Part shown: piece after piece, positions 2,567 through 61,893 of the stretch
How the letters are laid out: each line of letters starts with the position of its first letter
Position numbering within the stretch: the first letter of the stretch is position 1
Source of the DNA: Oegoconia quadripuncta
Taxonomy: Eukaryota; Arthropoda; Insecta; Lepidoptera; Autostichidae
Reading direction: 5' to 3'
Assembly (NCBI GenBank): GCA_949316235.1
Contig: OX438754.1
Coordinates: forward strand, 4,945,501 to 5,009,500
DNA length: 64,000 bases
The notes under the pieces: model-generated
The model's database searches: none
Told to the model about the DNA's origin: nothing
Seen by the model: the letters and a program-made list of their open reading frames with translations, nothing else
Position numbers and translations under genes: made by a program

Positions 2567-2877
2567 GAAGGAAGTTTCCACTACGGCCTTGCCCTATCTG
2601 CGGAGATGATATCTCTGGACTTCATTATGGGGTGCGTACTTGTGAGTCGTGCAAGCTCTTCTTCAAAAGGACAATACAGTTGGGAAAAGAAATGTCGTAC
2701 AATTGTAAAGGTTTAGGAGAGAACTTCTGCGAAGTCAGCGTGGCGTCCAGGTCTTGGTGCAGGTATTGTAGGTTCACTAAGTGTATAAACGCAGGAATGC
2801 AACCTTCTATGGTTAGACTGAAACCGGGCCAGGGGAGACCTTATGTTTTAAGCAGTTATTATTCAAACATGAAATGA
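2567..2877 (+). CDS. Terminal exon: nuclear-receptor-type C4 zinc-finger DNA-binding domain
   Basis: The exon starts after the acceptor 'catttacag' and runs 2 + 309 bases to TGA (102 aa). Finger 1 is C8-x2-C11-x13-C25-x2-C28 with P-box region 'CESCKLFFKRT'. Finger 2 is C46-x7-C54-x9-C64-x2-C67, followed by 'RFTKCINAGM' and a short basic tail. The order and spacing are those of a nuclear-receptor DNA-binding domain. 'CESCK.FFKRT' is closest to the FTZ-F1/NR5A type as I know it. Oddities: L replaces the usual G after K in the P-box, the D-box loop has 7 residues instead of 5, and there is no ligand-binding domain because the stop follows about 35 residues after the last finger cysteine. Both fingers are in one exon. 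The acceptor phase equals that of every FLYWCH exon in the window, so I infer it is an alternative 3' exon of the same gene; an independent truncated receptor is the alternative. An AATAAA lies at about 3017. Confidence 0.8.
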
Positions 2878-5399
2878 CCCCAAGTTAGATAATTTAAAAA
2901 AATATATTAGAAATATGTAGTTATATTTTTGTTAATTATGGCTTTTTTTTTCTCACTACTGACAAGAAATGTCCGTATAACTCAATCTAATAGCAATTTT
3001 AATAGTTCTATAGTTAAATAAAAGGGATCCCCATTAGTCCCATGTTTATATTCAATTGTTCAAAATTTAAAGTTACGGAAGCCTATTTTACATATTTTAT
3101 AAACTCCCTAGTTATTCAACTAATTTTACAATAAAATGTTTACAATAAATTTGTTGGGAATACGATCCTTATGTTACGAGTTAGGAAATGACGATTCAAA
3201 TTAAAGTATAAAGCTCATCACAGACGGTGAAGAGATACGATAATATTTTATATTTAGATATTGCTTGCTCATACATTAATAAATATATCAAAAAATATGT
3301 CAAAAGATATCTTAAGATCAGAAGCTCTGACTTTTATACATATAGCTGTGTATAGACAGGCACAAGTGAAAAAATAAATATTATCTTCGTCGTGTGTGAT
3401 GCGTTTAAATTCATCATCAGCAAATATAACCGAGGGTTATAGTATAGAACACACGACGGCGCACGACGACGCAGGCGTTAACTATGCTCGTGGCGGACGT
3501 CTATTTATCTACTTAGTTAAGAGGGGGTATAAAGCAAAGTGCTAATCATAACAAACAATTTATTTACTCAACTAACTGACAACACTCGTTGTGCACTTCA
3601 TTAGCGAAGTTAAGTAAGCATCTGGCACAGTCATTCCTTGAAGCATTTATTTCAACGCAAGATACATGATATCATTTGTTGAGTGTCAATTTAAACTACT
3701 GGAATTAATAAAGGCTTATTGCATTTATCTGTCCGTCAGTATGTCCAAGCTACTACCGCTTCGGAAAGAGAAATCCTCTGTGGTAAAAGAAGCGGCGCAA
3801 GAAACCCACAGGATCATTGTTGTCCTTGTTGAAAGGCACATTAAATGTCAGGTCTCGGTTGTTTTTAATTTAAAGTACTGTTAACCTAAGTCTGTGACCT
3901 ACAAGAAGGCTTGAAAACTGTTAGGTAACTACTAGGCTGTCGCAAATCCACCAATGACCAGTGGGCTCGCGGGGTGGATTACGACTTATTGTCCCCCAAT
4001 AATGTAGAGGTAAAGCTGTTTGTTTATCGTTTCATAAAAAAATAATACAGGTAATAAACTACAGTTTTCAAGACAGAAACGTAACAGCTAACGCTGTATC
4101 GATGGAGAGAATCACGAAGTTGGTATTTCCTATTTTTTTGCTTGTATATATACTCTTGAAAAGACCGAGGCCTTTGTCAAAAAGGTTAATAAAATATGAA
4201 TTAGCCTCTTAGTTATTGAGAAATAAGAAGAAAATTCGGCAAAAGATGCGGAAGCGTTACAATGACGTCATCGTCGGACTAGAGCGAATATATTTGTCTC
4301 TAGGTAGCAGTTGCTTTTATATCCCCTCTTACAATTTCTTAATTCAATCTACCTTGAATAATCGTTAATTATTTGTGCAATAAATAGGTCATTAATAATA
4401 ATGATAATTTACAATAATGCTTCAGATTTTTTATGTAGGTACTCGAGTACATATCTACTTTTATTGTAAATAAAGAATACGATATTGAACGAGACACTTA
4501 TAAGAGAATTTTTATTGACGAGACTGCTATTTTCAGGCTTGTAGTTGATTTATTAAGTATATTAATACAGGTTGGAAAGCATCCACCCAGTATATTAACG
4601 TTCAACATTGTGTATCTAAGTGCAATCATATTAATAATTAAATTTTATTTACCTAGTACATTTTATACATTATAAGACTGTACATTTTATAATTATATGT
4701 AAAAGTTATAGTTATAAATTAAAAATAAAGGAATTAAGTACAATTCAAGTGCGGTTTCATTCCATTGTAAGGTAATCTATGTAAGTAACGAGAAACATAT
4801 CATAGGAGTACTTATGGATCGTACCTATGGGTATGGGTAGTATGCTACGTGACCAGTTCTAGGCAAGTTCAGGGCCCTCCCCCCCCTGTGACCATATGTA
4901 GTATATCTCTAGAACCCCTCCCTTATTTGATCATATGTTTATCTGCGTCGTTGTGGTTGTAGTATTTTTATTGTTCATTGTATTTTAATAAAAAACAGGG
5001 TTTTAATTTATGAAGCGATTTATTACATATTTTTTCATAAATGACATACAATTTAAATATATATTTTTATTTTTTCAATTAACATATTTCTATGTAACGA
5101 ATAGACCTAAAAGTTTGTATAGAATGCCGCGCGGGATCAACCCTTTTAGATCCTCTAACAATAAAACTTTATATAATAGAGCTTTATGTAGATTATGACT
5201 GACTGACAAATAGTTCAATATACCACAACTTGACACTTTGTCCATTGTGAGTCAATCGTAATGTTTTGTTATTACTAATACAACGTAATGGAAAAAGATT
5301 ACGGAAATATCGCTTAGACATACGATCTTGGTCGTGTGAGCGAAAAGGATGGAGTTCGCTTTGTTTTTAGTGTTCATGTAAATGTTCTGCTGTTTTCAG
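2878..5399. other. Non-coding, with one dispersed repeat
   Basis: It begins with the probable 3'UTR of the preceding exon. At about 3560-3850 is a repeat whose inverted copy lies at about 43985-44190: 'gatatcatttgttgagtgtc' and the '...aagctaccgctt...' stretch are shared. The remainder is AT-rich with no exon, domain or RNA gene that I can recognise. Confidence 0.5.
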
Positions 5400-5626
5400 G
5401 TATAATGGTACCACGCTACAGCTGGTCTCGCCAAGGAAATGCAATAATAATTCTAGGCGATTACAGGTTTAAGAAGCGTTCAAGACACACCAACCTTAAG
5501 CATGAAATACATTGGGTGTGCAATAAATGCGATAAAGGGTGTAAGGCGAAGTTAACAACGCTGAACGATGCTATAATTAAAATTAGTAATGACCATAATC
5601 ATGACGGTTATAAGAAGATTCAATGA
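5400..5626 (+). CDS. mod(mdg4): Terminal exon: FLYWCH zinc finger, + strand
   Basis: The acceptor 'tgttttcag' precedes 2 + 222 bases and a stop (74 aa). The FLYWCH core is visible: 'SRQGNAIIILGDYRF' as the first strand pair, W38-x-C40, C43/C47, and H65-x-H67 in 'NDHNHD'. GDYRF replaces the usual GYRF, a one-residue insertion. FLYWCH domains bind zinc through C2H2 ligands and mediate DNA or protein contacts; in Mod(mdg4) they form isoform-specific C-termini. It is the only FLYWCH exon on the + strand here and lies between the C4-finger and psq exons, which ties those two to the same locus. It has the same acceptor phase as all the others. Confidence 0.85.
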
Positions 5627-6788
5627 TATTTGTTGTTATTTATTGTTAGTTAAAGAATATTTATAGATCTGTTTATTCGTCACTTCAGGGCCAGAACGCC
5701 ATTTCTTCTTCCCAAAAAAGAACAAAACACATGTTTAGATTTAAACAACTTTATTTAATTACCAAGTTGTGCCTTATTTGGTGCCTTTTTACAAGCTTTT
5801 ATAATTATATTTATGTCGTTTTACTGTGTTTCATGATCATCATGATAAATTATAATTATTAAACAATAGTTTGTAAAACATGAGTATCTACAATGGTCAA
5901 TTTTGGTAACCTAAGTACCTCGAATATTTCTATTTGTATCTACTCGTAAGTAAGGAGCTGCTTACAACATGATTTATTTTTATAGGTATGTATATGGTAT
6001 ATATAATAATTATAATATAACAATATTGTTGTTGTTACTAAATAGAAGTTTATACGGTTTATAATTAATTATACACCAACTGAAACAAGGTACCCACATC
6101 ATATACATAATATTTCATTAGTTAGTACATATGAATGATATACATACTCGTAGTTCATGATTTATATATAGGTATCTACCATATCTTTATATAATATAAT
6201 ATTGGCAATAAAATTCTTTTGCCTTGAGTTTGGCACATAAAAAAATTTATTCTAACATGTGCATCAAGAATAAATGCTTTATTTTGTGTGTCAACTATTT
6301 TATACATATAACAAGTAATAATAAGCTTTAACTATGTGTAATTAAGATCCATGAAATAATGTTATGTTTTGAAATATTTATCTAATTTTACAATTCATTG
6401 ATTTAATTGTGTTAGTTTGCTTATTTATATAATTCAAGTAGAATACAAAAGTTTATGAGGCGTTATAGTTGTAATTGATGTCATAATTAAAATATAATAT
6501 TATTTTGAAAACTTGTGGGATGTGTAAATTGCAATTTAGTATAAAATATATATTTGTTTAATTATAAATCACTAAGTGCACTTAATTCTACTTAAGTAGG
6601 TAATACATAAACAATATTTGGTACAATACCATTGTCTATAGAACAAAGTGAGATAATTTTAACATTCCATTTGTTAAGTAGTTTTAGGTAGGTATCTAAT
6701 AAAATCTCTTGTGTTGCCAAAAAAATTATTGTGTCCGGAAAAGATTGCTGCTTTTAATTGATTCATTTGTTACTTTTAGTAGAATCTT
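5627..6788. other. AT-rich non-coding
   Basis: 3' flank of the FLYWCH exon, then very AT-rich sequence without recognised exons or shared repeats. Confidence 0.45.
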
Positions 6789-6834
6789 TGCTTTCCATCA
6801 GGTGACCCGCATGCTCGTTTGCCGCCCTCTCATA

Positions 6835-10152: not shown

Positions 10153-11736
10153 TTAAGTATCTAAAAAAAGAGAATTATATTTGCTATTATGATATTCTAC
10201 AAAACACAAGCCTTGACATAGCCCTGGTTTATTTGGACATTGCGGACAATAAGCTCCCGTATCCACCCTTTTATTAAATTTTTTCCAACACATCACACAC
10301 CGCTTCCTCTTTAATCTCTTTGTTTTGGGATCTCTAGGCAATTTGTATGATGCATGACGCAGGATTCCTGGAGTCGGTGGGAGACTATTGTCTGTTTGCT
10401 GGCTTGAAATCAAAGCTTTTATAATTATTTGTCTAAAATCATATAAGGACATAGGTTTTTCTCCAAATCTGTTATATAAGGAGTAAGCGTTACACAACAT
10501 CATACATACAATTTGAACGCCTAGTTTTTTATGTAACTTAAGGGTTTTATGTTCAGGGTTGTAGTTAGACATCATTTGATTGTGTTTCTCTACGCCTCTC
10601 ATATATTTGTTATAATTAACTACAACACTGGGTTTTGACTTTGTGACGTTCGACCGCGATGTATAATCCTCCCATTCGCCGCCATGTTCCGAAGAAATCA
10701 TGAAAACCTCTCGTCGGTCATTCCACTTAGTAACACATATGCCGCTATTCGAATACATGCTTATTGTTTCATTTTTGGATAATTTTTTCTTTACAACTTG
10801 GCTAGGATTGCCTTTTCTATTGCCGCATAGAGTTCCGGTGACATGGGTGTTGCATTCTACTAAATAGTTGGTTAATTCTATCGAATTATAGAACTTATCC
10901 ATGTAGACTGCGTGCCCTACGCCCAATTTTTCTTCTAGCAATTTTTTCACAATTTTAATGACATAATTTCTGCCTCCTAACAGTGCATCACGTCCTGTAC
11001 ATACAAAAATTTTTAATACACAACCAAATTGATCAGTAAGTAAATGCATTTTGATTCCATATTTATTGTCCTTTGCTTTCATGTTTTCTTTAAAAGATTC
11101 ATCGATGCAAAGTATTTTATCGGGGTAATATATTGCACACATTTTTTCATTAAATATGTCTACAAGACCAGAAATTTTATTAAGGCAATTATCTTCTGAA
11201 TTAGCATCATAAAAATTGAGACATCTTAAAATCAACAGAAATTTATCACGAGACATATTGTTTGAGAAATATGTCATGTTAAACTGTTCATCGGTACTCC
11301 AGTAATCATATACCCGGTTACATTTAACTGTGCTCATATGAAAATACAACCCTAAAAAAGTTCTGAGCTCAGCGACCGAAATATCTCTCCACTTCGTTAT
11401 TTTCGCATTCATTCTGTAATTTGTTTCTAATAAATTTTTGGCATATGTATTAATATTATTCACCAAATGAACAAATATAGTGTGTGTAAATATTAAATCG
11501 AAATATTGTATGGGTTTGTCAATTCGGCCATTCTGTAAGCCGCATGTCCCTAAAAAGTTTGTAACACTGCTTGCTGTTTTGGGATTGAAACTCCAATCTT
11601 GTGAATCTTCGTCATCCTTAAATTCTTGAGTCGGGGAGGAGGCCTCCTCTTCCTCAGAATCAGAAGAGGAGTGATATCTGGATTCTAGGTCGAACTCGTC
11701 AGAGGAGACTTCTGATATATTTCTTAATTCAGTCAA
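10153..11736 (-). CDS. piggyBac-like transposase, 527 aa, altered catalytic region
   Basis: An uninterrupted frame with an acidic Ser/Glu-rich N-terminus (residues 8-45), the piggyBac transposase core from about residue 75, and a C-terminal Cys-rich zinc-binding region (C480, C483, C497, C500, C507, C511). The first two catalytic Asp positions appear as D235 ('LLTDQFG') and D280 ('YMDKFYNS'). The third, normally in 'GGVD.LDQM', reads 'RGVEKHNQM', so E383 replaces Asp and the next Asp is Asn. The stretch after 'IDESF' that normally carries a longer basic K/R-Y-x-P-x-KP segment is shortened to 'KENMKAKDNKYGIK'. The length is close to the usual 550-600 aa. No matching terminal inverted repeats were identified in the flanks. 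It may be a recently inactivated element or a domesticated copy. It lies on the opposite strand to the + exons that flank it. Confidence 0.85.
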   Translation of the reverse strand: MTELRNISEVSSDEFDLESRYHSSSDSEEEEASSPTQEFKDDEDSQDWSFNPKTASSVTNFLGTCGLQNGRIDKPIQYFDLIFTHTIFVHLVNNINTYAKNLLETNYRMNAKITKWRDISVAELRTFLGLYFHMSTVKCNRVYDYWSTDEQFNMTYFSNNMSRDKFLLILRCLNFYDANSEDNCLNKISGLVDIFNEKMCAIYYPDKILCIDESFKENMKAKDNKYGIKMHLLTDQFGCVLKIFVCTGRDALLGGRNYVIKIVKKLLEEKLGVGHAVYMDKFYNSIELTNYLVECNTHVTGTLCGNRKGNPSQVVKKKLSKNETISMYSNSGICVTKWNDRREVFMISSEHGGEWEDYTSRSNVTKSKPSVVVNYNKYMRGVEKHNQMMSNYNPEHKTLKLHKKLGVQIVCMMLCNAYSLYNRFGEKPMSLYDFRQIIIKALISSQQTDNSLPPTPGILRHASYKLPRDPKTKRLKRKRCVMCWKKFNKRVDTGAYCPQCPNKPGLCQGLCFVEYHNSKYNSLFLDT

Positions 11737-11845
11737 TGTATCCTCTCCTCCTGGTAAAAAAAAAACAGAATGTAATTGTTTTCATATTCTATAATTTCAT
11801 TAGGTACAGTCGAGAAAATGAATTGTGAGTATGATATATCTAACG

Positions 11846-12077
11846 ATCTTACAAAAATACCCGTAAAGCTGAAAGGGTGTTAAAGAATCCCTTGTCAAGA
11901 GTCTATTGACAATATATGAAATCCGTAGTACAATATTATGACTTACCGAAAAATTAATTATGTTTAATAAAAATATTAGTCATAGTCATCATAGAAGCGC
12001 AACACTATTTCAATAGACTCTTCACGAGGGATCCTTTAACACCCTTTCAGCTTTACGGATATTTTTGTAAGACCGTG
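11846..12077. mobile_element. MITE, about 230 bp, 60-bp terminal inverted repeats
   Basis: The left arm 'cttacaaaaatacccgtaaa' to 'gagtctattg' pairs with the right arm 'caatagactctt' to 'tatttttgtaag'. It sits about 110 bp upstream of the transposase start codon. No sequence match ties it to that gene. Confidence 0.75.
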
Positions 12078-12734
12078 TATATATTTTTTTTATGATTAGT
12101 TGGATACGCGTTTGACCACATCTCACCTGATGGAAAATGACGATATGGCCGAAGGTGAATGATAATGAAAACAGTTTAGTTTGGTAATATCATTTAATCA
12201 AGAGATTTCACGTCTAAATTGAAGACAAGGTCTCGCTCATATTTAGCATAAGCAAGGTGACGAGAGCCGGCCACAGTCATCATTACATCATCATTAGGTA
12301 ATTCTCAATGTATAGTTTATTTTCTTCAAGTATTAGATTTCGACAGATGGTACCTATATGTTTACCACCAGTAACAGTCTTGTTAACAACTTCTCAATGC
12401 AAGCATTGTTTTATGCGCTTGACTTAATTATTTTATTTAGAAACTTACAAATTAAATAGCTGAAGGAACTCTATGACATCGTTAATAATTCATCATAATG
12501 ACAGCCTCACAGGATGTCCACTGCTGTACATAAGTCGGTCACAGATAACCAGAGCGACCGGTTAGAAGTGGCCTGCATCCAATGAGGCGAGGAGGCCTAA
12601 GAAGCATTGGACGTCCAGTGACTAGATTGGTGTAAGTGTCCGACGTATTTATTTGTTATTATTTTTAATACTTTTTGTGGCGTTACCTCACCGAAACGCA
12701 GGGTATCGGGATTCGTTAACAAAAACACACACAC

Positions 12735-13265: not shown

Positions 13266-13687
13266 ATTCAATATTAAAGAAGAGACGTGTACAGTGGCCT
13301 CTGGAAAGCTTGGCGGTGGCGGTGGCTGCAGTAAAAAGATATGGAATATCCATCCACCAAGCATCGGCTCGATACGGAATACCCAGGACGACACTCAGAA
13401 ATCACTTGCTATCCGGAAAATTAACAATAGAATTGGGCAGAAAAGCAACGATGACCAATGAACAAGAGAACGATTTTGTATACAGATTAGGAAAATTAGG
13501 AGTACCACTAACGGGTATGCTAATTCGAAAACAAGCGTTTATTTTTTGTAAGAAATATAATATTCCGAATAATTTTAATAATAAATCTGGTACTGCTGGA
13601 CGTGATTGGTTGAAACAGTTTTTAAAAAGACATCCAAATGTACGTCAACGCCGTCGTGGCGGTAGTATTGGTTATGTCATTTTATGA
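13266..13687 (+). CDS. mod(mdg4): Terminal exon: psq-type HTH plus CENP-B-type HTH
   Basis: The acceptor 'ttttattctag' precedes 2 + 417 bases and a stop (139 aa). Residues 8-50 form a psq HTH: 'WPLESLAVAVAAVKRYGISI', then 'ASARYGIPRTTLRNHL'. Residues 61-122 resemble the CENP-B/Tigger HTH seen at the N-terminus of pogo-type transposases: 'TMTNEQENDF', then 'AGRDWLKQFLKRHP'. A basic tail (QRRRGG) follows. No DDE catalytic domain follows, so this looks like a pogo/Tigger DNA-binding module captured as an exon. It shares the FLYWCH acceptor phase; AATAAA lies at about 13756, 70 bases past the stop. Alternative: an independent pogo-derived gene remnant, but an intact acceptor in the common phase argues against that. 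Confidence 0.8.
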
Positions 13688-21008: not shown

Positions 21009-21211
21009 TTACAAAGGCCGGTGGGTATGCTTCTTGAGACGATCCACTACCCTAGATCCGATGGTCACGATCATGGAATGGCAGTCCCTGGCTTTGCTGT
21101 TTGAGCACAGCCACTTAACCCTGGACGAGCAGACGGAGTGGCGGGTGTAGCAGAAACCTCCCAACCGCATGATCTTCGCTCCAATTTTTGTCGTGAAAAA
21201 TGTTGGACCAT
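21009..21211 (-). CDS. mod(mdg4): Terminal exon: FLYWCH zinc finger (last - strand exon)
   Basis: On the - strand the acceptor 'ttatcccacag' precedes 2 + 198 bases and a stop (66 aa). The core reads 'KIGAKIMRLGGFCYTRHS', then 'VKWLC', 'ARDCHS' and 'KKHTHRP'. All four candidate zinc ligands are present, with C-x7-C spacing. GGFCY replaces GYRF and the exon ends right after the finger. It is the most distal FLYWCH exon of the - strand set; no further - strand exon of this class was found between here and base 1. Confidence 0.85.
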
Positions 21212-22954
21212 CTGTGGGATAAATACATTGTTGAATATTACTGAAGAAAAGGATACAAGATACAATAATTTATTGCCTATTCTAGTTTACAAATAAGATA
21301 GTACAGTCAATCTGAACCAACATTAAAAATACTAAAGTCACCAAACGCCTTCATTGTAAAGAAAAAAACTGAGCCAATTCTAGAGAATCTAGAGAAATCT
21401 AGAGATTTGTATTTTTTATTTTATTGAAATTAAACATTAGACAAACTGACAAATTTCCACCATTTTTAGATACAGGTAAGGTATCTGTAATTCATGTATT
21501 AAGAGAACTATAGACTGGCCACGTCACCCTTTGAGTCATTTCCGAGACAATAAAAAAAAATTGGCGCCGACAAACTTTAGTATCCTATTAATTCATGATT
21601 ATTGTCACTCCTTGTAAAAAAAAATAGTATTTCAAAAACGCGGCACTTTAAGATATTGCTACGCTTGCAAATCGGTAATTAGTATAAATATTTAAAAACG
21701 AAGTACAATTATCATAAGAACAGTTTGAACGTGCCAATTTTTAAAATTTTAAATTGTTTGGAAAAGGTGAAACATTAACGAAATAGCTATATTGCCAGCC
21801 TGTATGGTCGATGCCGTCTTAGGTGCGTGGTCATCCTCCCGCCTCTCTCCTCTACTGGAACTCATGTGGGCTAGGATAGGATAGAACAGTGGCACCCGAC
21901 ACGGCGCTTACTGACGATAGACGGTGCCCTACGTGACTCTATTGCTACTTGGCCCCCAAGATAAAAGAAAGAAATAGAGATTGTAAGTAGAAAAAGAAGT
22001 TTCCCATTTCCACCCCTCGGTAAAGGAAGTCAAAAGGAGATGGACGTAGCTAAGCTGACGCCTGCGACTGGAAGCGCGTAGTGGAAGATTTGTAATATGA
22101 CTGTTCCACATATTATGGTAAACTTTTGTTTATTAACAAAGTTGCATTAACACATTCGCAAGTTACAGTATGAATTATATTTATAACATATTTAGCATAT
22201 TGACAAATTCTTTCAAAATAAGTGCGTAAAAATTAACCTTATTTGTCAAATCAACTATTGATAAACAAAAGTTTCATGAGGAGGCCAATTAATAAACATG
22301 ATCATGAGTAATTGAGTAGTTTATTGAATAATTGTTTATACCATACTATTACGAGTATATTTATGTGTATCTGACATTATTTGTTTAAGAGCCGATTGTG
22401 ACGATTCTTTTTTTTATGTCTCTTTACCTTAAAGCCCTCGCCACATTGTAAGCGTCGCTCCTACACCGATTTCAGAGTGACGACGCTAAATTACACTTCC
22501 ATAGAATGCAATGCGATATCGCACCGAGCAGCTTTCAGTGTGACGATGACTTTAGGTAAAGAAACAAGTAAAATTGTTACAAAAGAAAAACCAAAACAAT
22601 CTAAAAAAAAAATCATCACACAGTTCATAAACAAATTTAGTCGGAAATATGCAGATTAATATTTCTAGGTACCTACGACAGATGTATACACTACTTTATG
22701 TACTACAGTGTAGTAAACAAGAGACTGAGACTTAAAAAATTACCTTGTAATGTAAAGATATATATAGAATAAATATTTACAGTGGTCAGGAATACCCTGA
22801 CCACATGAAGTGCCTACAAAACGAACTCCAAAAAAAGAAAGCTTGACTAGTTTCCTTGGCAGTGATTTGCAATAGCAAGGTATGACAATCGAGCAAGTAA
22901 CTCGCATGATAGAAAGTGATCAACACCTTTGAGACCAGCCCTCGTACCATGTGA
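21212..22954. other. Intronic sequence, nothing firm
   Basis: AT-rich. About 22090-22290 contains a hairpin-like pair ('ttgtttattaac' and 'gataaacaaaagt'). A 60-codon open frame at 22477-22659 has no recognisable domain. No further splice-framed exon seen. Confidence 0.4.
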
Positions 22955-23390
22955 AAATTTAGCGTTAAGCTTGCTTGCGTTCGACCGTTAAATTTAGTAC
23001 AAAGCGCCCTAGAAGTAAATTATGGTAACTCGATACGTTCCACTAGACCGTTCCGTATGTATTTAACATACCGAACATTCGCACTAAGCGGTTCGACTCT
23101 TCATTCATAATGCGAACAGCCAAGGCATGGAACTCCCTTCCGGCGTCAGTCTTTCCTGAATCCTAACGTTGGGATATTCAAGAGCAGGGTGAATAGGCAT
23201 CTACTGAGATCGCGTGCTTCATCTTCGGCCACATCGTCACTTCCCATCAGGTGAGATTGTGGTCAAACGCGTATCCAGTGTATCATAAAAAAAGAAAAAA
23301 AAGACGTTTATCTCTTTTCTTTACTTCTAGGGCGCTTACGTGGTACAAAATTTAGCGGTTGGGCGCAAACGAGATGAACGTAAAATTTTA
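22955..23390. mobile_element. Inverted-repeat element split by a LINE tail
   Basis: Left arm around 22960-23020 ('aatttagcgttaagc', 'cgccctagaagtaaa') pairs with the right arm around 23320-23390 ('tttacttctagggcgctta', 'aatttagcggttggg'). Between them, 23040-23290 is a LINE 3'-end fragment ('ggaactcccttccg', 'agcagggtgaatagg', ending in an A-rich tail), so the LINE inserted into the older MITE. Confidence 0.65.
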
Positions 23391-23949: not shown

Positions 23950-24143
23950 TTATGGTAAATGATTGTGCTGGTTGTTCTGCTTAATGACGTCATCCTCGAC
24001 GGTGTACACGACAGCTTTGCAGTTGCTCTTATGCATCGTGCACCACCATCGCGTTCTCTTGTTGATCACTCTGTGCACTCTGAATGTGTAACCGTCTAGG
24101 TTCATTATACGGGCCCCTCTGGCACTGGTTGTGTACCATACCT
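23950..24143 (-). CDS. mod(mdg4): Terminal exon: FLYWCH zinc finger
   Basis: Acceptor '...tattttcag' then 2 + 189 bases and a stop (63 aa). Core: 'SARGARIMNLDGYTFRVHR', 'TRWWC', C-x6-C ('MHKSNC'), then 'NQHNHLP'. This is a compact, textbook FLYWCH with the stop two residues after the final His. A possible microexon in the same phase lies 4.5 kb upstream on this strand at 28676-28696; this is the nearest downstream acceptor for it. Confidence 0.88.
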
Positions 24144-24526
24144 CTGAAAATATAAAAATACATGATAATAATAAAATTCTCTTTTACTTATTATAATTAA
24201 ATAATATATGTATTTAATTTTATATATACTCGTAGGTACAGTCGGCGTCACAGTTATTCATACAGGGCTGTTGTACATGATTAATGGGTAGCATGATGCC
24301 AATTAAAGCTATACCGCAGCCGAAACGACAATCGATGAAAACAAAACGGCTGAACCGATTTTGATAAAATATGCCTAAGATTACCGCTAGAAAAATAGCT
24401 TCTAAATAAAAAAAAACGTATCCCAATCGGTTCACCCGTTTAAGAGCTATGGCCCTCTTTTTGCATCGGGGGTTAAAAATAACCCCGCAGGTATGACTAA
24501 TTATGGAACGGACTGTACTTATGTAT

Positions 24527-31262: not shown

Positions 31263-31527
31263 TCAGTTTACTTTGTGTATGACCTGCGAAGGTGGGTGAG
31301 TATGAGTGCCCTGGATCCTAACAACTTCTTCCACATGATTGTCCATGGCAGTATAAATGGCAGCAATACAACCTTTGCGGAATTGGCTGCATTTCCATCG
31401 CAACGTTTTTACCGCGCTGATTGTTTCTAGGTCGTGTGTATCTGTCTGTAGCGATAACCGCCTAAGATAAGTTCCCGGGGGTTTCCCAATATCATGAACG
31501 CGACCTCTGAAATCTTTGGACATACAT
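31263..31527 (-). pseudogene. mod(mdg4): Frameshifted FLYWCH terminal exon
   Basis: The acceptor 'tttactctttcag' is good and the first reading frame, in the common phase, gives 'ELILGGYRYRQIHTT' and then a stop. The second half of the domain lies in another frame: 'TLRWKC', 'RKGCIAA', 'GTHTHPPS'. Total length is 265 bases, one short of the 2 + 3n pattern, so a single-base deletion (or two-base insertion) between the GGYRY strand and the W-x-C motif explains it. All zinc ligands survive. It could be a recent pseudo-exon, a segregating null allele or a sequence error. Confidence 0.75.
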
Positions 31528-31580
31528 CTGAAAGAGTAAATGTTATTAATTGTGATATCAGCCACAAGCCATCAAATAAG

Positions 31581-31680
31581 ATGGGGTTTCCGGGTCAGTA
31601 CACTACCATCTTCGGCCTCATCTTCACTTAACATCAGGTGTGATTGACGTCAAGTGCTAACCCGTTATTGGATAAAAAAG
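31581..31680 (+). mobile_element. SINE, family B fragment
   Basis: Only the 3' part: 'ggggtttccgggtcagtac' to 'aacccgttattggataaaaa'. Confidence 0.7.
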
Positions 31681-34112: not shown

Positions 34113-34345
34113 TCAATGTGTTGTGTACTTCCCCTTTCTGCTCTCTGAAGGTGGATGATTGTGTTCACTATTATACCTCAAAAGGCCGACAATACCCTTA
34201 ATAGTGAAGAATGATGCCTTACATGATGTTTTGCGATACGTGCAAAACCATCGAGTTTTATCACCATTACAAAACTGTTGAGTGAACTTGTATCCTGACA
34301 GGTAAACAGCTTTAGCCCCTCTGTTCGTGTAAGTAAATATGGGTT
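34113..34345 (-). CDS. mod(mdg4): Terminal exon: FLYWCH zinc finger
   Basis: Acceptor 'aattattttcag' then 2 + 228 bases and a stop (76 aa). Core: 'NRGAKAVYLSGYKFTQQF', 'KTRWFC', C-x6-C ('TYRKTSC'), 'FFTIKG', then 'SEHNHPPS'. A 12-residue basic tail follows the finger ('ESRKGKYTTH'). It lies directly 5' (on this strand) of the duplicated non-coding block at 34.6-35.1 kb. Confidence 0.88.
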
Positions 34346-37384: not shown

Positions 37385-38242
37385 CTACGTTGGGGTGACA
37401 AACAAATGGGGTTCACAATTCGTACAATACAATACAACACAATACAAATACTCTTTATTGCGTAAAAATCTCATATCACTTACTTCATCTACTTTTTTAC
37501 TACCATTTACAATATCAAGAGTTTGCGGAAGTTTTCTGTAATTTCTAAATTGTATATCTTTAGTCTTCTCTACGTTTACTTTTAAGCTAATAGTGGCTAG
37601 CCAATTCACTAATATATGTAATGTATTATTAATTTCGTCAATGTATTCAGCATCATTTAAATTGTCCTTAGATATAAATATGGTAGCATCATCGGCAAAC
37701 AATACACACAAATATTTAATGATTAATGGTAATTCATTGATATAAATTAAAAATAATAGGGGTCCAAGTACGCTTCCCTGTGGAACACCCAATCGAATGT
37801 CTTGATAGTCGGATTGTATTCTCTCAACAGTTTTTATGTTTTTTTCTTCAGAGGTGAGCGTATCAAAGGAATTTTCCGTAGAAATATTAATCTGATATTT
37901 ATTTCGATGAGTAATGTTTACTTCTTGTGATGTTGGTGTAACGGGAATTTTTCCTATAGTTGATGATGATAGTGTAGGTTTCACTGGTGGTGGTATTGAT
38001 GTCGGCGGCGGTGTGTATAAACTCTGAGCCCTTTGCGACTTATTTACTTTAATATTAGTGTTTGTAGCCTTATGCGTACACTTGAGACACTTCCATTTAT
38101 TCCTGTTGTCTTTGGTCATCGAATAGAACCTCTTCTCAGAAACACTTACACATTCTATATGATGTGCTCTTTGACAGGTTGAACATTTTAAAAACTGTTT
38201 GACTGAGATAGTATTTTCGCATTTATCGCATGTTAGCGTCAT
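37385..38242 (-). pseudogene. Non-LTR retroelement protein, internally deleted
   Basis: One frame joins a PHD/zinc-like N-terminus (C5, C8, C17, C20, H25/H26 region: 'CDKCENTIS', 'CSTCQRAHHIEC', 'WKCLKCTH') and a Pro-rich linker directly to the second half of a reverse transcriptase: 'LGVPQGSVLGPLLFLIYIN' and 'FADDATIF', where F-A-D-D is the catalytic motif. The endonuclease and the first RT third are missing, so this is a deletion derivative of a Jockey/CR1-like element. The tail runs into 'aaagagtatttg' type sequence near 37440. Confidence 0.8.
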
Positions 38243-38921
38243 TTTGCAGCTAAGAATAGTGGAAGATTATATGCTTCAAATAAAAACAAAAAAAGTCACA
38301 ACTTAGGTGGGACTTGAACCCGGTGTCTTTCGATTACGAGTACAACGCTCACACCACTAGGCCTCACAGCAACTCGTCGAGTATGTTCAAATATGGATAC
38401 AGTATCTGCGCTAAATGTTTATTTACATTCGGAAAGCGATTACTTTTAATATTGTTTTTTCAACACACCTACAAGATCACTATGACTATTTTTTTTTATT
38501 ATAACACTAGGAAAATCACTTATTTATAACAGTTTTTACTTGGGATTTATTGATTTATTTGAGTAATAGTTATTTGCTTCATTAATAGTCCACATAGGTT
38601 TCGATTTTTTGGATAAAATTTCCACATTAACACGTCCAACATTTAAGCACTTATTCACTATTATGCAGAGAATGCATAACACTGATAACGTTCACGCCGG
38701 TAATTCAGTTCCTTTTTTATTTATTTAGAGATAAATAATAACAGGGCGAATGATCATATTTTACAGCTGACGTCAATGATATATATAGGTAGTATAATAT
38801 AGGTAGGTACATCGTGTTTTAAAAGTACATATTCAGTTCTAGCTGAAACTTTTGAGCAGTCCTGCTATGTGAGAACTCACTGCCCACTTCCTTTAAATGA
38901 AGAAGTGTTCGTAAGAAATCT
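38243..38921. other. Intronic, nothing firm
   Basis: A tRNA-like scrap in reverse appears near 38310-38370 ('gggacttgaacccggtg'), probably a SINE head. A polyadenylation-like TTTATT (AATAAA on -) lies near 38714, downstream of the next exon on this strand. Confidence 0.4.
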
Positions 38922-41446: not shown

Positions 41447-41670
41447 TCACATCGGCTGCCATTTTGTATATCCACTTTTATTACGCTCGCGTCGGATTTT
41501 ATACAAAAGTGTATTTCTTGGTATCCCATAAATCTGTTCGGCTTTGTAAGAAGACATTTCATTTTTTCTTATACTCTCAAGAGCGAGTTGTAAAGTGTCT
41601 GGATCATGGTGCAACGTATACTTTCTCTTGCATTTAGATTTCGTTGCTGAACCGAATTCGATCAGGAACT
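41447..41670 (-). CDS. mod(mdg4): Terminal exon: psq-type HTH
   Basis: Acceptor 'attattatttcag' then 2 + 219 bases and a stop (73 aa). The HTH reads 'YTLHHDPDTLQLALESIRK', 'EMSSYKAEQIYGIPRNTLL' and a basic end 'YKIRRERNKSG'. This is the psq/CENP-B-like fold in which 'YGIPRxTL' forms the recognition helix. It is the sister of the 44.3 kb exon with about half of residues identical by eye. Expected role: sequence-specific DNA contact by the isoform. Confidence 0.8.
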
Positions 41671-42711
41671 CTGAAATAATAATTATAGGTTTCTATAAGA
41701 GTGCAGAATAAAAATGCAAATTGAGATGTATGCATAGGTATATTTGTTCAGCAAGAAAGGTCTGGAACACTTTACGTTCTTTCATGACCTACTCTAGAAC
41801 AAACAAAACTATAGATTTGCGTATACGCAAATCGAAAGTTATTAAAATAGGGGAAATTGTACAATACTGTAAAGAAGTATTAACATTACCTTTTAACGAC
41901 ATGCATTTGTTATTATTTCTTACAAATCAATACTAGATATTTATATTTAATAATGTGTATAATAAATGCTATGCCTAGGTATAGTAAACTAATTTTTACA
42001 TGACTACGTAAATACAATAATTTAACTTGACGTCTGTCATACCCGATGCTCTATAAGGCCAAAGATGGAAGCGTGCTCGCAATAAATGAATTTTAAAAGG
42101 TTGTTTGCATGCATAAGTAAATTTATGGGATATTATAAAATGAATTTAAAAATGTAGTCTGTTTGGGAAAGGTTTGGTGATCTCATGGTTATATAATATG
42201 CACATTTTTTGGATGATAAACTCATTAAAAGTTACCTAAATAAGCCGAACTCTTTGACATGTAGCGCTCACTTGCGAAGTTAAGTATTGCTTTTATTGGA
42301 ACAATCATAATTATAGGTAGTTTCGTAATGTCCTACAAATTCTTTTTATATTTTTCAACAAACATTACAGCATCCACCCTCCTATCGTTTACGAGCATAA
42401 AGTCAAAAGCGCAAAATAACAAATGGTTTGTCGATCATTACTTATTAACGTATTCAGGCTCCACCAAAAACCAGTGTTGTAGTTGTAGTATAAAACAATG
42501 AGTCCAGTTTTGTGTCCATAACTCTTGCATCACTCGTACAAGGGTATGGTAAGATCGACCAAAACGTCACAAATGGGATCAACGCGGGTTAGATAAATGG
42601 CGACAGGACAACGGAACAATACGAGTATGTAACTCACAGATGCTCCTCAGGTTAAAGGGCAAAATGTATAAATCCGTAATAATACCTGTCGTAATGTATG
42701 GAGCGGATCGG
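41671..42711. other. Intronic, nothing recognised
   Basis: AT-rich. A 71-codon open frame at 41721-41936 has no recognisable domain or acceptor in phase. Confidence 0.4.
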
Positions 42712-44262: not shown

Positions 44263-44489
44263 TCACGTCACTTTCCATTTAGGCCGTCCTACACTTTTAC
44301 TATGTCGGCCATGCAGTTTGTTCAAAAGTGTTCTTCGAGGTATCCCATACATCTTTTCGGCCGCGTAAGAAGACATTTCTTTTTTTCTGAGACTCTCAAG
44401 AGCTAGATGCAATAGGTCAGGATCATGATTCACCGTATACGATCTTTTCTGGTATTTGAGCTTTGGTAACACTATTTTAAACTGGACAT
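44263..44489 (-). CDS. mod(mdg4): Terminal exon: psq-type HTH
   Basis: Acceptor 'atattttattttag' then 2 + 222 bases and a stop (74 aa). HTH: 'YTVNHDPDLLHLALESLRK', 'EMSSYAAEKMYGIPRRTLL', then basic 'NKLHGRHSKSVGRPKWKV'. 'GRPKW' gives an AT-hook-like GRP core at the end. A tandem relative of the 41.4 kb exon, 2.6 kb apart on the same strand. The acceptor tract is T-rich and ends in 'tag' rather than the 'cag' of most others. Confidence 0.8.
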
Positions 44490-46428: not shown

Positions 46429-46622
46429 TTATGGCGGTTGATGGCAGTGTATGTTATTGCATTTTATAATCATTTCCCCGATTGTAAAGATGGCCGCCCG
46501 ACACCTCGCGTGGGTTGCGCACTGCCAACGGGTCTTGACACCACTCTGACGGTGATAACAGAACCTGAAACCATCCACAGTGATGATGCTGCCACCCCTC
46601 GATGAAGTAGTGTAGTTTATTC
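46429..46622 (-). CDS. mod(mdg4): Terminal exon: FLYWCH zinc finger, duplicate 1
   Basis: Acceptor 'tattttttccag' then 2 + 189 bases and a stop (63 aa). Core: 'SRGGSIITVDGFRFCYHR', 'KTRWQC', C-x5-C ('ATHARC'), 'IFTIGEM', then 'NIHCHQPP'. The stop is three residues after the last His. The same exon, intron edge and 3' flank recur at 49.8 kb, so the pair arose by a local duplication. Confidence 0.87.
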
Positions 46623-49764: not shown

Positions 49765-49958
49765 TTATGTCGGCTGATGCAAGTGTATATTGTTGCATTT
49801 AGTAATCATTCCTGCGATTGTAAAGATGAACGCCTTACACCTAGTATGAGTTGCGCACTGCCATCGGATCTTGAAACCGTTTTGACGATGACGACAGAAC
49901 CTGAAGCCATCCACAATGATGATGCTGCCCCCCCTCGATGATTTAGCGAAGTTTATTC
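49765..49958 (-). CDS. mod(mdg4): Terminal exon: FLYWCH zinc finger, duplicate 2
   Basis: Acceptor 'aaattttttTCAG' then 2 + 189 bases and a stop (63 aa), exactly the length of the 46.4 kb exon. Core: 'SRGGSIIIVDGFRFCRHR', 'IRWQC', 'ATHTRCKA', 'NIHLHQPT'. About 15 of 63 residues differ from the sister copy, including C to L between the two zinc-ligand His residues. The frame is intact and ligands are kept, so it looks functional rather than decaying. Confidence 0.85.
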
Positions 49959-57829: not shown

Positions 57830-58395
57830 AGCGGGCCCGGGCGAAGCAAAGGAAGCGATCAACATATGTATATGTCGTTGGCAGTCGTTGAATGAAACTG
57901 AATGCCTAGGCGAAACGTAATGTATTTATTGGTGGACAATGTTGTTGGTTAGGTTCCCTTATCGCGGGTGGGGGGCTCAGTAACCGTGGCTTGCTTCCCC
58001 AGTACCCAAGAGGATACCTACGAGAACAGACTTGTCGACGGGCTGACTTGAGGTGAATGCTCCAAGTGGGCTTGGTTCTGGCACCCACTTCGGATGCAAG
58101 ATGGTGGGCTGCGGAGGGAGGGGAGTGCCAGTATTACCGTGCACCGATCTTCCTACCCTCCGCAGCCCAGGTGGGACTGCAAGCGACGAGGAGTAATGGT
58201 ATGACGATGCGCCACTCTCCCTATCCTCCGAGACTTGGTCATGGGATACTGGTGGGGCCCGCGGAGGGAGAAGAGTGATGGTATTACGGAGCGCAGCTAT
58301 CCCTGTGGTGATTCGCCGTTGAGTGCCGGTAGAACGGGTGCTCGTAGAGCGCCGCTTTAGGCCCTGGGGGGCGTGAAGCCTGGTCGAGTACGCAA
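57830..58395. other. GC-rich block, probable retroelement fragment
   Basis: Much more GC-rich than its surroundings, with an internally repeated phrase ('gcggagggag', 'gtattac') about 140 bases apart. Open frames on both strands carry no recognised domain. The base composition and sharp edges look like a transposon fragment; class not determined. Confidence 0.4.
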
Positions 58396-58535
58396 GTCAC
58401 AATTGAAAAAGGATAGTTAAATTAAAATGTTTGCTGCGAGAGATAACTTTGAAATTTGAATATTATCAATAATATTAAAATTTCAAAGTTCTGTAATACG
58501 GATCTTCTGGCCCTCATTATATTCGTAACAAACAA

Positions 58536-58756
58536 TTATATTTTGTAAAGCACTGGTTGGTCTGGCATAGCATGGTTATGCGGTGTAGTTTTCACTATTT
58601 CGTTTCCAATGGTGAATGCGACTGACTTGCAGCCACGCTTCGAGTGGGTCCCACAATACCATCGCACTTTAAGGCCAATCTCCCGATGTTTTAAGTATCG
58701 ATATCCGTTTACACACAGCGTCAACGCACCGCGAGCTGATCTCATCCATACTGGTT
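58536..58756 (-). CDS. mod(mdg4): Terminal exon: FLYWCH zinc finger
   Basis: Acceptor 'gtttcttattgcag' then 2 + 216 bases and a stop (72 aa). Core: 'SARGALTLCVNGYRYLKHR', 'KVRWYC', C-x7-C ('GTHSKRGC'), 'VAFTIGN', then 'TPHNHAMP'. The N-terminal 'PVWMRSARGA' resembles the 24 kb exon ('VWYTTSARGA'). A 10-residue tail follows. Confidence 0.9.
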
Positions 58757-59221
58757 CTGCAATAAGAAACCATTGTTGTTCATTACTTGTTTCACGATTG
58801 CCATATAAGCTTCAAGTTACTCAAGTTACACTTTATAATTTTAAGCAAAAGGTAATGTTCAGAAGTCCAATCCACACGCAACCAAAATTTAATTTTCCTG
58901 TCCCTCTAATAACAACTCCTCAAATACTCTAGCCGAAGTCTTGATAAGTGCAAAAATTCTCCAATAGAAATATAAATGTAAAATTACATAGATGTATGTA
59001 GATACTGATACAAAAAAACTCTAAAATCAAATATTCAATAAAAAGCTAACTTGATATAATATAACTTGATCTGTGAAATATAATTTCATACAATTTAAAA
59101 TTTGTGTAGATTTTTATTAAACAACATAATACATAACAAAAGAATAAATTAACTAAAACGAGCTAAATGTATACAGAATGAAGTTTAAAAAAAAACAAGT
59201 TAATATGTTGTATTTATACCT
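58757..59221. other. Intronic, nothing recognised
   Basis: AT-rich. A near-palindrome lies just beyond the exon's stop at 58445-58495 ('actttgaaattt' pairing with 'aaatttcaaagt'). Confidence 0.4.
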
Positions 59222-59380
59222 ACAAGCTTTCCGCCCGCGGCTTCGCCTGCGTGGATTACTGTATAGCAGAAATTTGTTTATCTCGCGGGAACTACTTACT
59301 TTATCGGGATAAAAAATCCTATCCTATATTTCAGTCCAGGGTTTGTTCTACCTATATACCAAATTTCATCCAAACTTGGC
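59222..59380 (+). mobile_element. Retroelement 3' tail ('cccgcggcttcgcctgcgtgg' family)
   Basis: Shares 'ccgcccgcggcttcgcctgc', 'actttatcgggataaaaa' and 'ccaaatttcatccaaa' with 7130-7345. Confidence 0.75.
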
Positions 59381-60049
59381 AGTTTAAAAAAAAACAGTCT
59401 TATTAAAAGGTATACTTTATACATGACTATTTAAAAACACTGTCAAAATGTATTCAATGGAATTGTTTGGATTACTATTCATAAGTACATAACGCTTTCA
59501 AATTTCGCAAGTTGTTACAGAAAATAGCAAAACCACGTATGCACGTGCAATTATCATGTCTCAAATGAAAATTTTACTGATAAAAACATGTAATTATGTT
59601 TCAATTCGATAAAAAATTGCTCTTTAATATTTACAAAATTTTTAGGGTTCCGCACCTATTGCTGTCACAATGTAATCAGTCACTTTCTCTAGTTCGTAAA
59701 CGGAATGAGTTACAGGACTGAAATTTGAATTTTTTGTGTACAGTCCATAACACAATTAAGGTAGCAGGCTTAATTTTTATGATATTGTTTGGAGGGTCTG
59801 GGTTGAATTTTGTTATGTTTTCTTTTACATCTTGATCTTGTATATCATTTAATCATATGATAAATAAATTTCAGTTAAACTTAAATAACATACATAGACA
59901 CATAACGTCATTCAGATCACATTGTTAAATCAAATATATTAAAGAAATTACTAAACATACATAACGTCTCGACATTTATCCCAAATGTGTTTGTAAAATG
60001 TAAAACAATAGTGTTTGAGTATTCCAAATATTAAAAAGTTTTCTTTTAT

Positions 60050-60152
60050 ACACAACGGGTTAGCACTTGACCTCAATCACACCTGATGTTAAGTGAAGAT
60101 GAGGGCGAAGGTGGTAGCATACTGACCGGGAAACCCCATCTTATTTGGGGGA
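60050..60152 (-). mobile_element. SINE, family B, 5'-truncated
   Basis: 'cacaacgggttagcacttga' to 'atcttatttgggggact'. Confidence 0.7.
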
Positions 60153-60489
60153 CTTGTTTCAAGTTTGAAACAATATCTACGGTTCACTTTATGAAATATA
60201 TGGAAATGCACACGTGACAGCGGTTACAGGGTAACTGCAAAACTATAGATGTTTTTGATGGTAAGTTCCTTAGTCGCCTTTAACGACTACCACAGGAAGA
60301 GACGGGTTGGTTCTATTTTAATTTAATTTCCCTTTAAACTTTAACCTACATATATTTATAAATAAAGGCCTACTACCTTAACTGTGTTCTCGACTGTACC
60401 TAGTATGTTGACCCAAAACGTAATAGGTATAGATTGGAAATTCATTTTAATTATTTTTCTGGGTCGCATACATGAATAAGGAAAAACAC

Positions 60490-60585
60490 GGGTTGGTACG
60501 CTTCCACCTTCGACCTCATCTTCATTTAACATCAGGTGTGATTGAGGTCAAGTACGAACCCGTCGTACATAAAAAAAAACATTTC
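60490..60585 (+). mobile_element. SINE, family B, 5'-truncated, A-tail
   Basis: 'ggtacgcttccaccttcgac' to 'cgtcgtacataaaaaaaa'. Confidence 0.7.
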
Positions 60586-61297
60586 TTTTCTGACCCTGAC
60601 ATAGACCAGTCATTGAGTAGAGTAACGATTTAAGTATTTAAAAACAAAAAACCCCGACAGCATATTTTTTGGTTTGCGGACGCCATGTTGTTTTTTTTTT
60701 ACCATACAATGTATCCTATGATACTCTAGGTATCAAGACGAATGTAACGACACCATGCACATCGAAATCGGTCAAGCCATACACTCGAAAAACATTACCC
60801 TCCTTTCTTGGTCTTCGGGTAAAAATATACTTTTATTCTTTTTTATCGTTACAAATAAAGAAATGGAGTCAAAATTATCAGGTTTAGACCATTTTTGTTA
60901 CCGTTCATAAACTCAACCAGTTGAGAATTTGTCATTTCTATTTATTATGTATCATACAGATGCAGGTATTTACAACAAAATAGAACACGCTACGAGCAAA
61001 TAAACAAAGATTTTTTCTTTCACGGGTTATTTGTGTCTGCTCGATAAATAATGAAAATGGGTAAATACGGAACCCTCCACGCGCGAGTCCCACTCTCACC
61101 GGTTTCTTTTAGTTGTTACGTTTTACAATTTTAATTTCACAGATCATGGTGTATCAGCTTCATACTTAAAAATATAAGCGTTTACTTAAATTCAGAATTA
61201 ATTTAATTAAAAATGTATGAACATATTATTGAAAGAAATATATTATTGTTATTATTAAAACTATTGAGTATCGCTCATTGTTTTTATTTTGTAAAGT

Positions 61298-61480
61298 GCA
61301 CTCCTTACAGAGTGTAGTGTATACTAAGTATGTTATATCTATGTGTATGTAGGTAGAGCTTATAATATAATGTATTGAGTCGTGCTAATAAAGACAGTAT
61401 ATTCGTAAGCTCTACCTACACACCCATAGATATAACATACTTAGTATACCGTCTACACTCTGTAAGGAGTGTACTTTACA
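61298..61480. repeat. Long inverted repeat, about 180 bp
   Basis: 'gtaaagtgcactccttacag', 'acttagtata'-type and 'gtaggtagagctta' arms pair across a loop of about 40 bases with 'taagctctacctac' and 'tgtaaggagtgtactttac'. MITE-like, about 200 bases from the next exon. Confidence 0.85.
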
Positions 61481-61684
61481 AAATCATACTAATATGGGCC
61501 AGGCTGTATTCCTATTTTCTAGAGGTACAGAACGTAGAATGGTATACCGAATATTCCTCCCGGAGCAACGTTTCGCCAAAAGCAGAGTACATTGCGGAAT
61601 TTATTTTTAATAAAAATGTTCGTTATAAACAAACTCCGCAATACACTCGGCATTCGCGAACCGCGAGCTCTACCACAAGAATAT

Positions 61685-61893
61685 TTAAAAACCGTCCTCT
61701 CTCGGACAATCTTTATGCTCCTTTGTGTATTTAATAATTCTATTGTCGACAGTGTAAATAATGGATTTACAGCCGTTTCTGTTAAACGCGCAGCGCCAAC
61801 GGGTTTTATTTCCAATGTAGTAGTGTCGAGTGAATCTGTAACCGTCTATCATAATCTGACGCGCACCCCGCGATGACGTAATGAACCTGGGTC
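61685..61893 (-). CDS. mod(mdg4): Terminal exon: FLYWCH zinc finger, altered last ligand
   Basis: Acceptor 'cttttatttttcag' then 2 + 204 bases and a stop (68 aa). Core: 'SSRGARQIMIDGYRFTRHY', 'KTRWRC', C-x7-C ('AFNRNGC'), 'IIYTVDN', then 'TKEHKDCP'. The usual H-x-H is H-K-D-C, so the fourth zinc ligand would be Cys (H-x2-C) or be missing. It is the rightmost exon of the set found in the window and so, if common exons lie to the right, the first alternative acceptor. Confidence 0.88.

What the first reader, a model, noticed from the sequence alone, without database searches (positions are those of the whole stretch)
2567..61893. Nineteen alternative terminal exons with one common splice phase: a giant mod(mdg4)-type variable region
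Nineteen short exons on both strands each begin at an AG acceptor, need exactly two leading bases to complete a codon, and end in their own stop. Thirteen carry FLYWCH fingers, the signature of mod(mdg4) variable exons. Chance agreement of phase in 19 of 19 is about one in three to the 18th power. The set spans at least 59 kb with no common exon inside.
Basis: partly seen in the sequence, partly recalled or inferred. Interest (0 to 1): 0.92.

Follow-up and report, generated by a model that had tools for sequence, protein, structure and literature searches.

The report
Giant moth mod(mdg4) variable-exon array
This stretch of a moth or butterfly chromosome holds eighteen apparently interchangeable final exons of a chromatin-regulator gene whose shared front part lies over a million bases away, in an array with at least 170 such exons that also includes DNA-binding parts like those of hormone receptors and transposons.

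Summary
The observation largely holds. I find 18 domain-bearing exons between 2567 and 61893: 13 FLYWCH (one frameshifted), 3 psq, 1 nuclear-receptor zinc domain (zf-C4), 1 piggyBac-derived; no nineteenth. At the acceptor beside the domain 18 of 18 need two leading bases; the best acceptor chosen blind to phase gives 15 of 18.

In the window's own genome, BTB common exons of mod(mdg4) lie 1.12 Mb to the right on the minus strand; their last donor (CAAG|GTAGGT) leaves one base, G. From there down to 4.38 Mb I count at least 172 FLYWCH exons. Outside the window, phase-blind best acceptors need two bases in 72 of 82 FLYWCH and 7 of 8 psq/zf-C4 exons tested. No unbroken plus-strand BTB was found on this contig, so plus-strand exons would need trans-splicing.

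Lepidopteran mod(mdg4) trans-splicing is published (PMC4667647). Not found in print: this scale, two nuclear-receptor exons (one with a clear Spodoptera counterpart beside the same FLYWCH exon), the psq exons, and a catalytically degenerate piggyBac exon. No RNA was examined; joining is inferred, and poly(A) signals are not enriched.

The parts
2567..2877 (+). Variable exon: nuclear-receptor (zf-C4) DNA-binding domain plus short tail, 102 aa, own stop
   Evidence: Pfam PF00105 4e-24; PDB relatives ERR/NR5A; acceptor needs 2 bases; Spodoptera relatives
5400..5626 (+). Variable exon: FLYWCH, 74 aa
   Evidence: Leave-one-out E 2.2e-14, no Pfam match; counterpart follows the zf-C4 unit in two Spodoptera gene models; 2 bases
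10153..11750 (-). Variable exon: piggyBac-derived, 531 aa, catalytic residues partly lost
   Evidence: DDE_Tnp_1_7 2.4e-69; acceptor score 7.1, 2 bases, no upstream Met; no close copy in the genome; GVE..N in place of GVD..D
13266..13687 (+). Variable exon: psq HTH plus Tc5-type HTH, 139 aa
   Evidence: PF05225 1.7e-9, PF03221 1.1e-7; 2 bases, no upstream Met
21009..21211 (-). Variable exon: FLYWCH, 66 aa
   Evidence: a stronger AG at 21240 is in another phase
23950..24143 (-). Variable exon: FLYWCH, 63 aa
29549..29778 (-). Variable exon: FLYWCH, 75 aa
   Evidence: Pfam 6.4e-9
31263..31527 (-). Variable exon: FLYWCH with the reading frame broken inside the finger
   Evidence: Acceptor needs 2 bases in the frame of the N-terminal part; that frame stops at 31427; the rest of the finger reads in another frame
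34113..34345 (-). Variable exon: FLYWCH, 76 aa
41447..41670 (-). Variable exon: psq HTH, 73 aa (a slightly stronger AG at 41692 is in another phase)
   Evidence: PF05225 1.3e-10
44263..44489 (-). Variable exon: psq HTH, 74 aa (acceptor assigned by its paralogue at 41670; weak score)
   Evidence: PF05225 1.8e-5; alignment with 41670; acceptor score -0.6
46429..46622 (-). Variable exon: FLYWCH, 63 aa (duplicate of 49958)
49765..49958 (-). Variable exon: FLYWCH, 63 aa
51649..51881 (-). Variable exon: FLYWCH, 76 aa
55526..55737 (-). Variable exon: FLYWCH, 69 aa
57397..57689 (-). Variable exon: FLYWCH, 96 aa
   Evidence: Pfam 6.5e-12
58536..58756 (-). Variable exon: FLYWCH, 72 aa
61685..61893 (-). 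Variable exon: FLYWCH, 68 aa
   Evidence: Pfam 1.4e-12

Best explanation
The window is a piece of the variable region of a lepidopteran mod(mdg4) gene. The common exons (BTB domain and linker) lie 1.12 Mb to the right on the minus strand and end in a phase-1 donor whose last base is G. Each exon here supplies an acceptor needing exactly two bases, one DNA-binding or DNA-binding-derived module and a stop. Joining the common donor to one of them gives one BTB protein with one of many tails. The junction codon is GNN, which can never be a stop. Shown by sequence: common exons, phase agreement, domains, strands. Inferred: that joining happens, that plus-strand exons are trans-spliced from separate transcripts, and that each tail steers the shared BTB module to its own DNA or chromatin sites.
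For: Common exons and donor; array beginning 18 kb below them; phase-blind best acceptor needs 2 bases in 83 of 95 distinct FLYWCH exons sampled (72 of 82 outside the window; 9 of 10 on the plus strand, 98 rows minus 3 duplicates) and in 7 of 8 psq/zf-C4 exons tested outside the window; 15 of 18 window exons have no in-frame Met before the domain; no unbroken plus-strand BTB match on the contig (all 116 candidates scored); dN/dS 0.28 and 0.32 in two FLYWCH duplicate pairs; structured RNA (z -7.65) at the start of the last common intron, an intron that carries the trans-splicing signals in flies; acceptors on both strands and trans-splicing published for Danaus, Bombyx and Plutella (PMC4667647).
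Against: No RNA evidence. Poly(A) signals within 250 nt of the stop: 6 of 18 against a background of 0.56, so the 3' ends are unproven. No shared upstream motif above controls. No BTB + zf-C4 protein among the 11 candidates of 201-637 aa, and no hit with a combined psq/FLYWCH query. The zf-C4 exon, 5400 and 44489 have an upstream in-frame Met, as have 3 of the 7 psq exons tested outside. The acceptor of 44489 is weak.
Confidence: 0.87

Rival explanations
1. The FLYWCH exons are mod(mdg4) tails, but the zf-C4, psq and piggyBac ORFs are unrelated small genes or transposon remnants that merely sit inside the array.
For: The zf-C4 ORF has an upstream Met; no protein among the 11 candidates joins BTB to zf-C4; psq and piggyBac domains are common elsewhere in this genome.
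Against: All share the phase; 7 of 8 further psq/zf-C4 exons tested do so blind. The second zf-C4 exon and the exons at 13266, 41670 and 11750 have no upstream Met, nor have 4 of 7 psq exons outside. In two Spodoptera gene models the zf-C4 unit precedes the counterpart of FLYWCH 5400. The piggyBac ORF has no close sister: next best by score 37% identity, short fragments up to 43% (81 of 196 candidates scored).
Confidence: 0.15
2. All minus-strand exons are reached by ordinary cis-splicing of one transcript of about 1.2-1.7 Mb, and the plus-strand exons are dead.
For: Common exons and most exons share the minus strand (139 minus, 9 plus of the 148 listed in the array).
Against: Plus-strand exons keep open frames and the right phase (blind: 9 of 10 FLYWCH; 5 of 5 psq outside the window; both zf-C4). 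The last common intron opens with a structured RNA; in the fly all mod(mdg4) mRNAs are made by trans-splicing (PMC12692577).
Confidence: 0.1
3. The array is mostly a graveyard of duplicated exons, with few in use.
For: One of 13 FLYWCH exons in the window is frameshifted; poly(A) signals are not enriched.
Against: All 148 listed FLYWCH matches in the array have no stop inside (a list of best matches, so biased towards intact ones); dN/dS 0.28 and 0.32 in duplicate pairs.
Confidence: 0.15

Closest known systems
mod(mdg4) of Danaus plexippus, Bombyx mori, Plutella xylostella (PMC4667647; abstract, passages and section 8 read)
   Same: BTB common exons, mostly FLYWCH acceptors, both strands, same chromosome (possibly so in Plutella), large locus (550 kb in Danaus)
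   Different: 9, 40 and 41 exon combinations reported there against at least 172 FLYWCH exons here over at least 1.75 Mb; nuclear-receptor, psq and piggyBac tails not mentioned in the text I read (3 of 9 Bombyx, 3 of 40 Danaus and 4 of 41 Plutella isoforms lack FLYWCH and were not described there; supplements could not be opened)
mod(mdg4) of Drosophila melanogaster (PMC12692577, PMC11727487; abstracts and passages read)
   Same: Common donor part, acceptor exons on both strands, structured RNA in the last common intron
   Different: More than 30 isoforms; the fly structure lies in the centre of the intron and terminates transcription, the one here starts within 30 nt of the donor and its role is untested
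lola of Drosophila (recalled, plus a mention in PMC4667647)
   Same: BTB gene with trans-spliced alternative tails
   Different: lola tails are C2H2 fingers (recalled); here one loose pattern match at 24220-24525 without Pfam support
Nuclear receptors of the ERR / NR5A type
   Same: Two-module C4 zinc domain with a CESCK P-box and a tail placed like their C-terminal extension (motif names recalled; alignment)
   Different: No ligand-binding domain; ends in a stop just after the DNA-binding part; sits in a BTB-gene exon array

Membership tests
mod(mdg4) | BTB common exons of the mod(mdg4) type upstream of the array | tested here: met
   (fly sequence recalled)
mod(mdg4) | Common donor and variable acceptors in one compatible phase | tested here: met
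   Donor leaves one G; 83 of 95 FLYWCH blind; 18 of 18 chosen, 15 of 18 blind in the window
mod(mdg4) | FLYWCH in most variable exons | tested here: met
   13 of 18 in the window
mod(mdg4) | Variable exons on both strands | tested here: met
   3 plus, 15 minus in the window; 9 plus, 139 minus in the list
mod(mdg4) | Chimeric mRNA by trans-splicing | not testable with these tools
   No RNA data; inferred from strand and lack of another BTB donor
mod(mdg4) | Conserved intronic U1-binding motif / terminator in the last common intron | tested here: inconclusive
   Strong RNA structure found; no fly motif sequence was compared
Nuclear receptor | C4 DNA-binding domain | tested here: met
   PF00105 4e-24, PDB matches
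Nuclear receptor | Ligand-binding domain | tested here: not met
   The frame stops 24 aa after the zf-C4 match; zf-C4 is the only Pfam family
Active piggyBac transposon | Intact catalytic acidic residues | tested here: not met
   Two of four residues changed, segment after IDE missing (which residues are catalytic is recalled)
Active piggyBac transposon | Terminal inverted repeats | tested here: inconclusive
   Two inverted pairs bracket the ORF (40 nt at 80%, 16 nt at 81%); the 40-nt one has a right arm that is a dispersed repeat (90% over 40 nt at 23218-23257 and short matches elsewhere); no clear piggyBac ends
Active piggyBac transposon | Several similar copies in the genome | tested here: not met
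   Next best match by score 37% identity, short fragments up to 43% (81 of 196 candidates scored)

The most novel reading that the evidence does not exclude
A single BTB gene has become an open socket: a phase-1 donor ending in G, to which any exon in the right phase can be joined from either strand of at least 1.75 Mb. It has collected several hundred interchangeable tails, including DNA-binding parts taken from nuclear receptors, psq/Tc5-type proteins and a tamed piggyBac transposase, a nuclear-receptor tail beside the same FLYWCH tail being shared with noctuid moths.
Probability: 0.6. Interest if true: 0.82.

Novelty: new variant of a known kind. Interest (0 to 1): 0.68.

Why it matters
It would show that trans-splicing lets one gene recruit foreign DNA-binding domains, from hormone receptors and transposons, as ready-made tails, and that such a repertoire can grow to hundreds. 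It gives exact acceptors and one exact donor sequence, so one long-read cDNA library would settle it, and it makes testable how a locus chooses among hundreds of acceptors.

Tried and rejected
Combined psq/FLYWCH protein query: 1377 candidates, none at E <= 1e-3 (default threshold). Upstream shared 9-mers in 18 exons: not above controls. Poly(A) enrichment: negative. Viral contigs with P0001: one short match of 19 residues, taken as chance. Standalone-gene reading: rejected for 15 of 18 exons for lack of an upstream Met. A plus-strand donor to the left: no BTB in C13:4,379,041-4,419,040, and only broken plus-strand BTB matches on C13. A second zf-C4 copy was not in the 5.5 kb fetched left of the window and was then found 8.7 kb away. 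PiggyBac ends: a bracketing 40-nt inverted pair turned out to have a dispersed repeat as one arm.

Samples. One search used 60 stretches fetched (all 9 plus-strand hits, then 51 minus-strand hits in list order; 59 gave a row, L041 was cut too short by my own coordinates), plus the window, C13:6,060,001-6,260,000 and seven loci. It kept 13 of the 16 FLYWCH exons of the right-hand stretch that one search found at a looser threshold. dN/dS: 8 pairs run, 3 without a usable dS.

Literature: full-text searches listed no paper whose title or shown abstract speaks of nuclear-receptor, psq or piggyBac tails of mod(mdg4); most listed papers were not opened; one search used a phrase that matched nothing. 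Open-licence PMC papers only; supplements could not be opened.
Full report
What is in the window. Six-frame ORFs, patterns and profiles give 18 exons that carry a recognisable domain: 13 FLYWCH, 3 psq HTH, 1 nuclear-receptor C4 zinc domain and 1 piggyBac-derived protein of 531 aa. All 13 FLYWCH exons are found by a profile built without them; Pfam, tried on 7 of them, recognises 6. The window's ORFs contain no BTB match.

Phase. At the acceptor next to the domain, 18 of 18 exons need two bases. Taking instead the best-scoring acceptor in the open stretch, whatever its phase, gives 15 of 18. Since the FLYWCH exons are copies of each other, 3^-18 is not a fair probability. The better tests are (a) unrelated domain classes and (b) exons outside the window that had not been looked at. 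For (b), 72 of 82 distinct FLYWCH exons (83 of 95 with the window's 13), 6 of 7 psq exons and the 1 further zf-C4 exon have a phase-blind best acceptor needing two bases; the seventh psq exon is a near tie. The acceptor score is a simple one of my own. Of 18 window exons, 15 have no in-frame Met before the domain, so they could not be translated as such without an upstream exon.

The common exons. The genome search placed the window at G000:C13:4,945,501-5,009,500 of a 622.6 Mb assembly in 45 contigs. Reading C13:6,060,001-6,260,000 revealed a BTB gene on the minus strand: exon A (ATG at 6,133,638 to 6,133,428), exon B (6,133,344-6,132,787) and exon C (6,132,700-6,132,626). By my reading all three end in phase 1; the last donor is GATGCACAAG|GTAGGT. 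Its BTB is 83 of 117 identical to the fly Mod(mdg4) BTB as I recall it. The leftover base is G, so the junction codon is GNN and never a stop; with a T, 10 of the 18 window exons would create a stop. The distance from the window edge is 1,123,126 bases. Genome-wide, all 116 BTB candidates were scored and 93 matched; on C13 the only unbroken ones are these exons and a second minus-strand gene at 12.84 Mb, the two plus-strand matches holding stops.

Extent. The Pfam FLYWCH search scored only 150 of 605 candidates; 148 of the 150 lie in C13:4.42-6.11 Mb, 9 on the plus and 139 on the minus strand. Three stretches read in full (the window; C13:6,060,001-6,132,626; C13:4,379,041-4,419,040; about 177 kb) hold 34 FLYWCH exons (13, 16, 5), of which 10 are in that list. 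So at least 172 are seen; scaling by density or by list share gives roughly 340 to 500 (my arithmetic; density varies along the array). The array stops below the common exons on the right; its left end was not reached. Psq exons in the array: 10 listed plus the one at window 44489, leaving aside one match at 5,093,569 that I take for a transposon copy by its long frame and its score twins on other contigs (150 of 319 candidates scored).

The nuclear-receptor exons. The window exon at 2567 matches zf-C4 at 4e-24 and ERR/NR5A structures. Its closest relatives are two Spodoptera gene models (63% and 57% identity), which both also carry the counterpart of window FLYWCH exon 5400; the S. frugiperda model has two zf-C4 units before it. 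These are predicted models, not cDNAs. Searching this genome for zf-C4 (all 41 candidates scored, 33 matches) gave exactly one other match on C13, 8.7 kb to the left on the same strand, with no upstream Met, a phase-blind acceptor needing two bases and an RGGR tail. The window exon pairs with the second S. frugiperda unit (45 of 68); the left copy is not clearly the partner of the first one (31 of 66, against 34 of 66 to the second). So zf-C4 beside that FLYWCH exon is shared; a one-to-one pair is not shown. No BTB-zf-C4 protein was among the 11 candidates.

The piggyBac-derived exon. It has the highest acceptor score among the phase-matching candidates listed (7.1) and no upstream Met. Of the four acidic residues (alignment to solved transposases; which are catalytic is recalled) the last two are replaced (GVE..N for GVD..D) and a segment after the first is missing. 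It groups with P0012 (55% identity, residues intact), the Cydia protein P0019 and P0023 (96/96 support); the last two are also degenerate. In its own genome the next best match by score has 37% identity and short fragments up to 43%. Two inverted pairs bracket the ORF, but the longer one has a dispersed repeat as one arm, so no clear transposon ends were seen. A long intact frame with lost catalysis and no sister copies points to a tamed transposase, not a recent insertion.

Selection and trans-splicing. dN/dS is 0.28 (46622/49958), 0.32 (51881/55737) and 0.63 (the psq pair). The first 130 nt of the last common intron fold with z -7.65 against 200 shuffles; in my own scan it had z -6.2 (40 shuffles) and 1 of 420 windows elsewhere in the 200 kb scored lower. 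In the fly, motifs for trans-splicing and a structured terminator lie in this intron (PMC11727487 and PMC12692577, abstracts and passages read). Plus-strand exons, among them both zf-C4 exons, point against the common exons, so only trans-splicing could join them. Against: poly(A) signals are not enriched behind the stops (6 of 18, background 0.56), no shared upstream motif was found, and no RNA was available.

Comparison. Lepidopteran mod(mdg4) with acceptors on both strands is published: 40 isoforms from 24 acceptor genes over 550 kb in Danaus, 41 combinations in Plutella, most with FLYWCH (PMC4667647). Distances of 950 kb to 1.28 Mb between donor and acceptors are reported there, next to the account of Aedes. 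The present locus is that gene; scale and tail composition are what I did not find in print.

Noticed in passing
G000:C13:12,834,353-12,840,486 (minus): A second BTB gene with a FLYWCH match 5 kb downstream on the same strand: looks like an ordinary cis-spliced BTB-FLYWCH relative.
   Followed up: no
G000:C13:6,132,496-6,132,625 (minus): Strong RNA hairpins starting about 25 nt after the last common donor.
   Followed up: partly
window 11843-12076: A 234-bp element with 67-nt inverted arms (93%), MITE-like, just upstream of the piggyBac-derived exon.
   Followed up: no
window 12120-12159: Part of a dispersed repeat, with a 90% copy at 23218-23257 and 14-base matches at six other places.
   Followed up: partly
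window 37385-38266 (minus): Fragment of a retroelement: weak PHD-like finger matches followed by part of a reverse transcriptase.
   Followed up: no
G000:C13:5,012,379-5,019,876 (minus): Two pairs of FLYWCH exons with equal scores, each 4,825 bases apart: a recent tandem duplication just right of the window.
   Followed up: partly
window 31427-31594 (minus): FLYWCH exon whose frame breaks within the finger: pseudo-exon or assembly error.
   Followed up: partly
L004 (G000:C7:17,962,781): FLYWCH in a 457-aa open frame that looks like a transposase (my reading, no family search), unlike the C13 exons.
   Followed up: no
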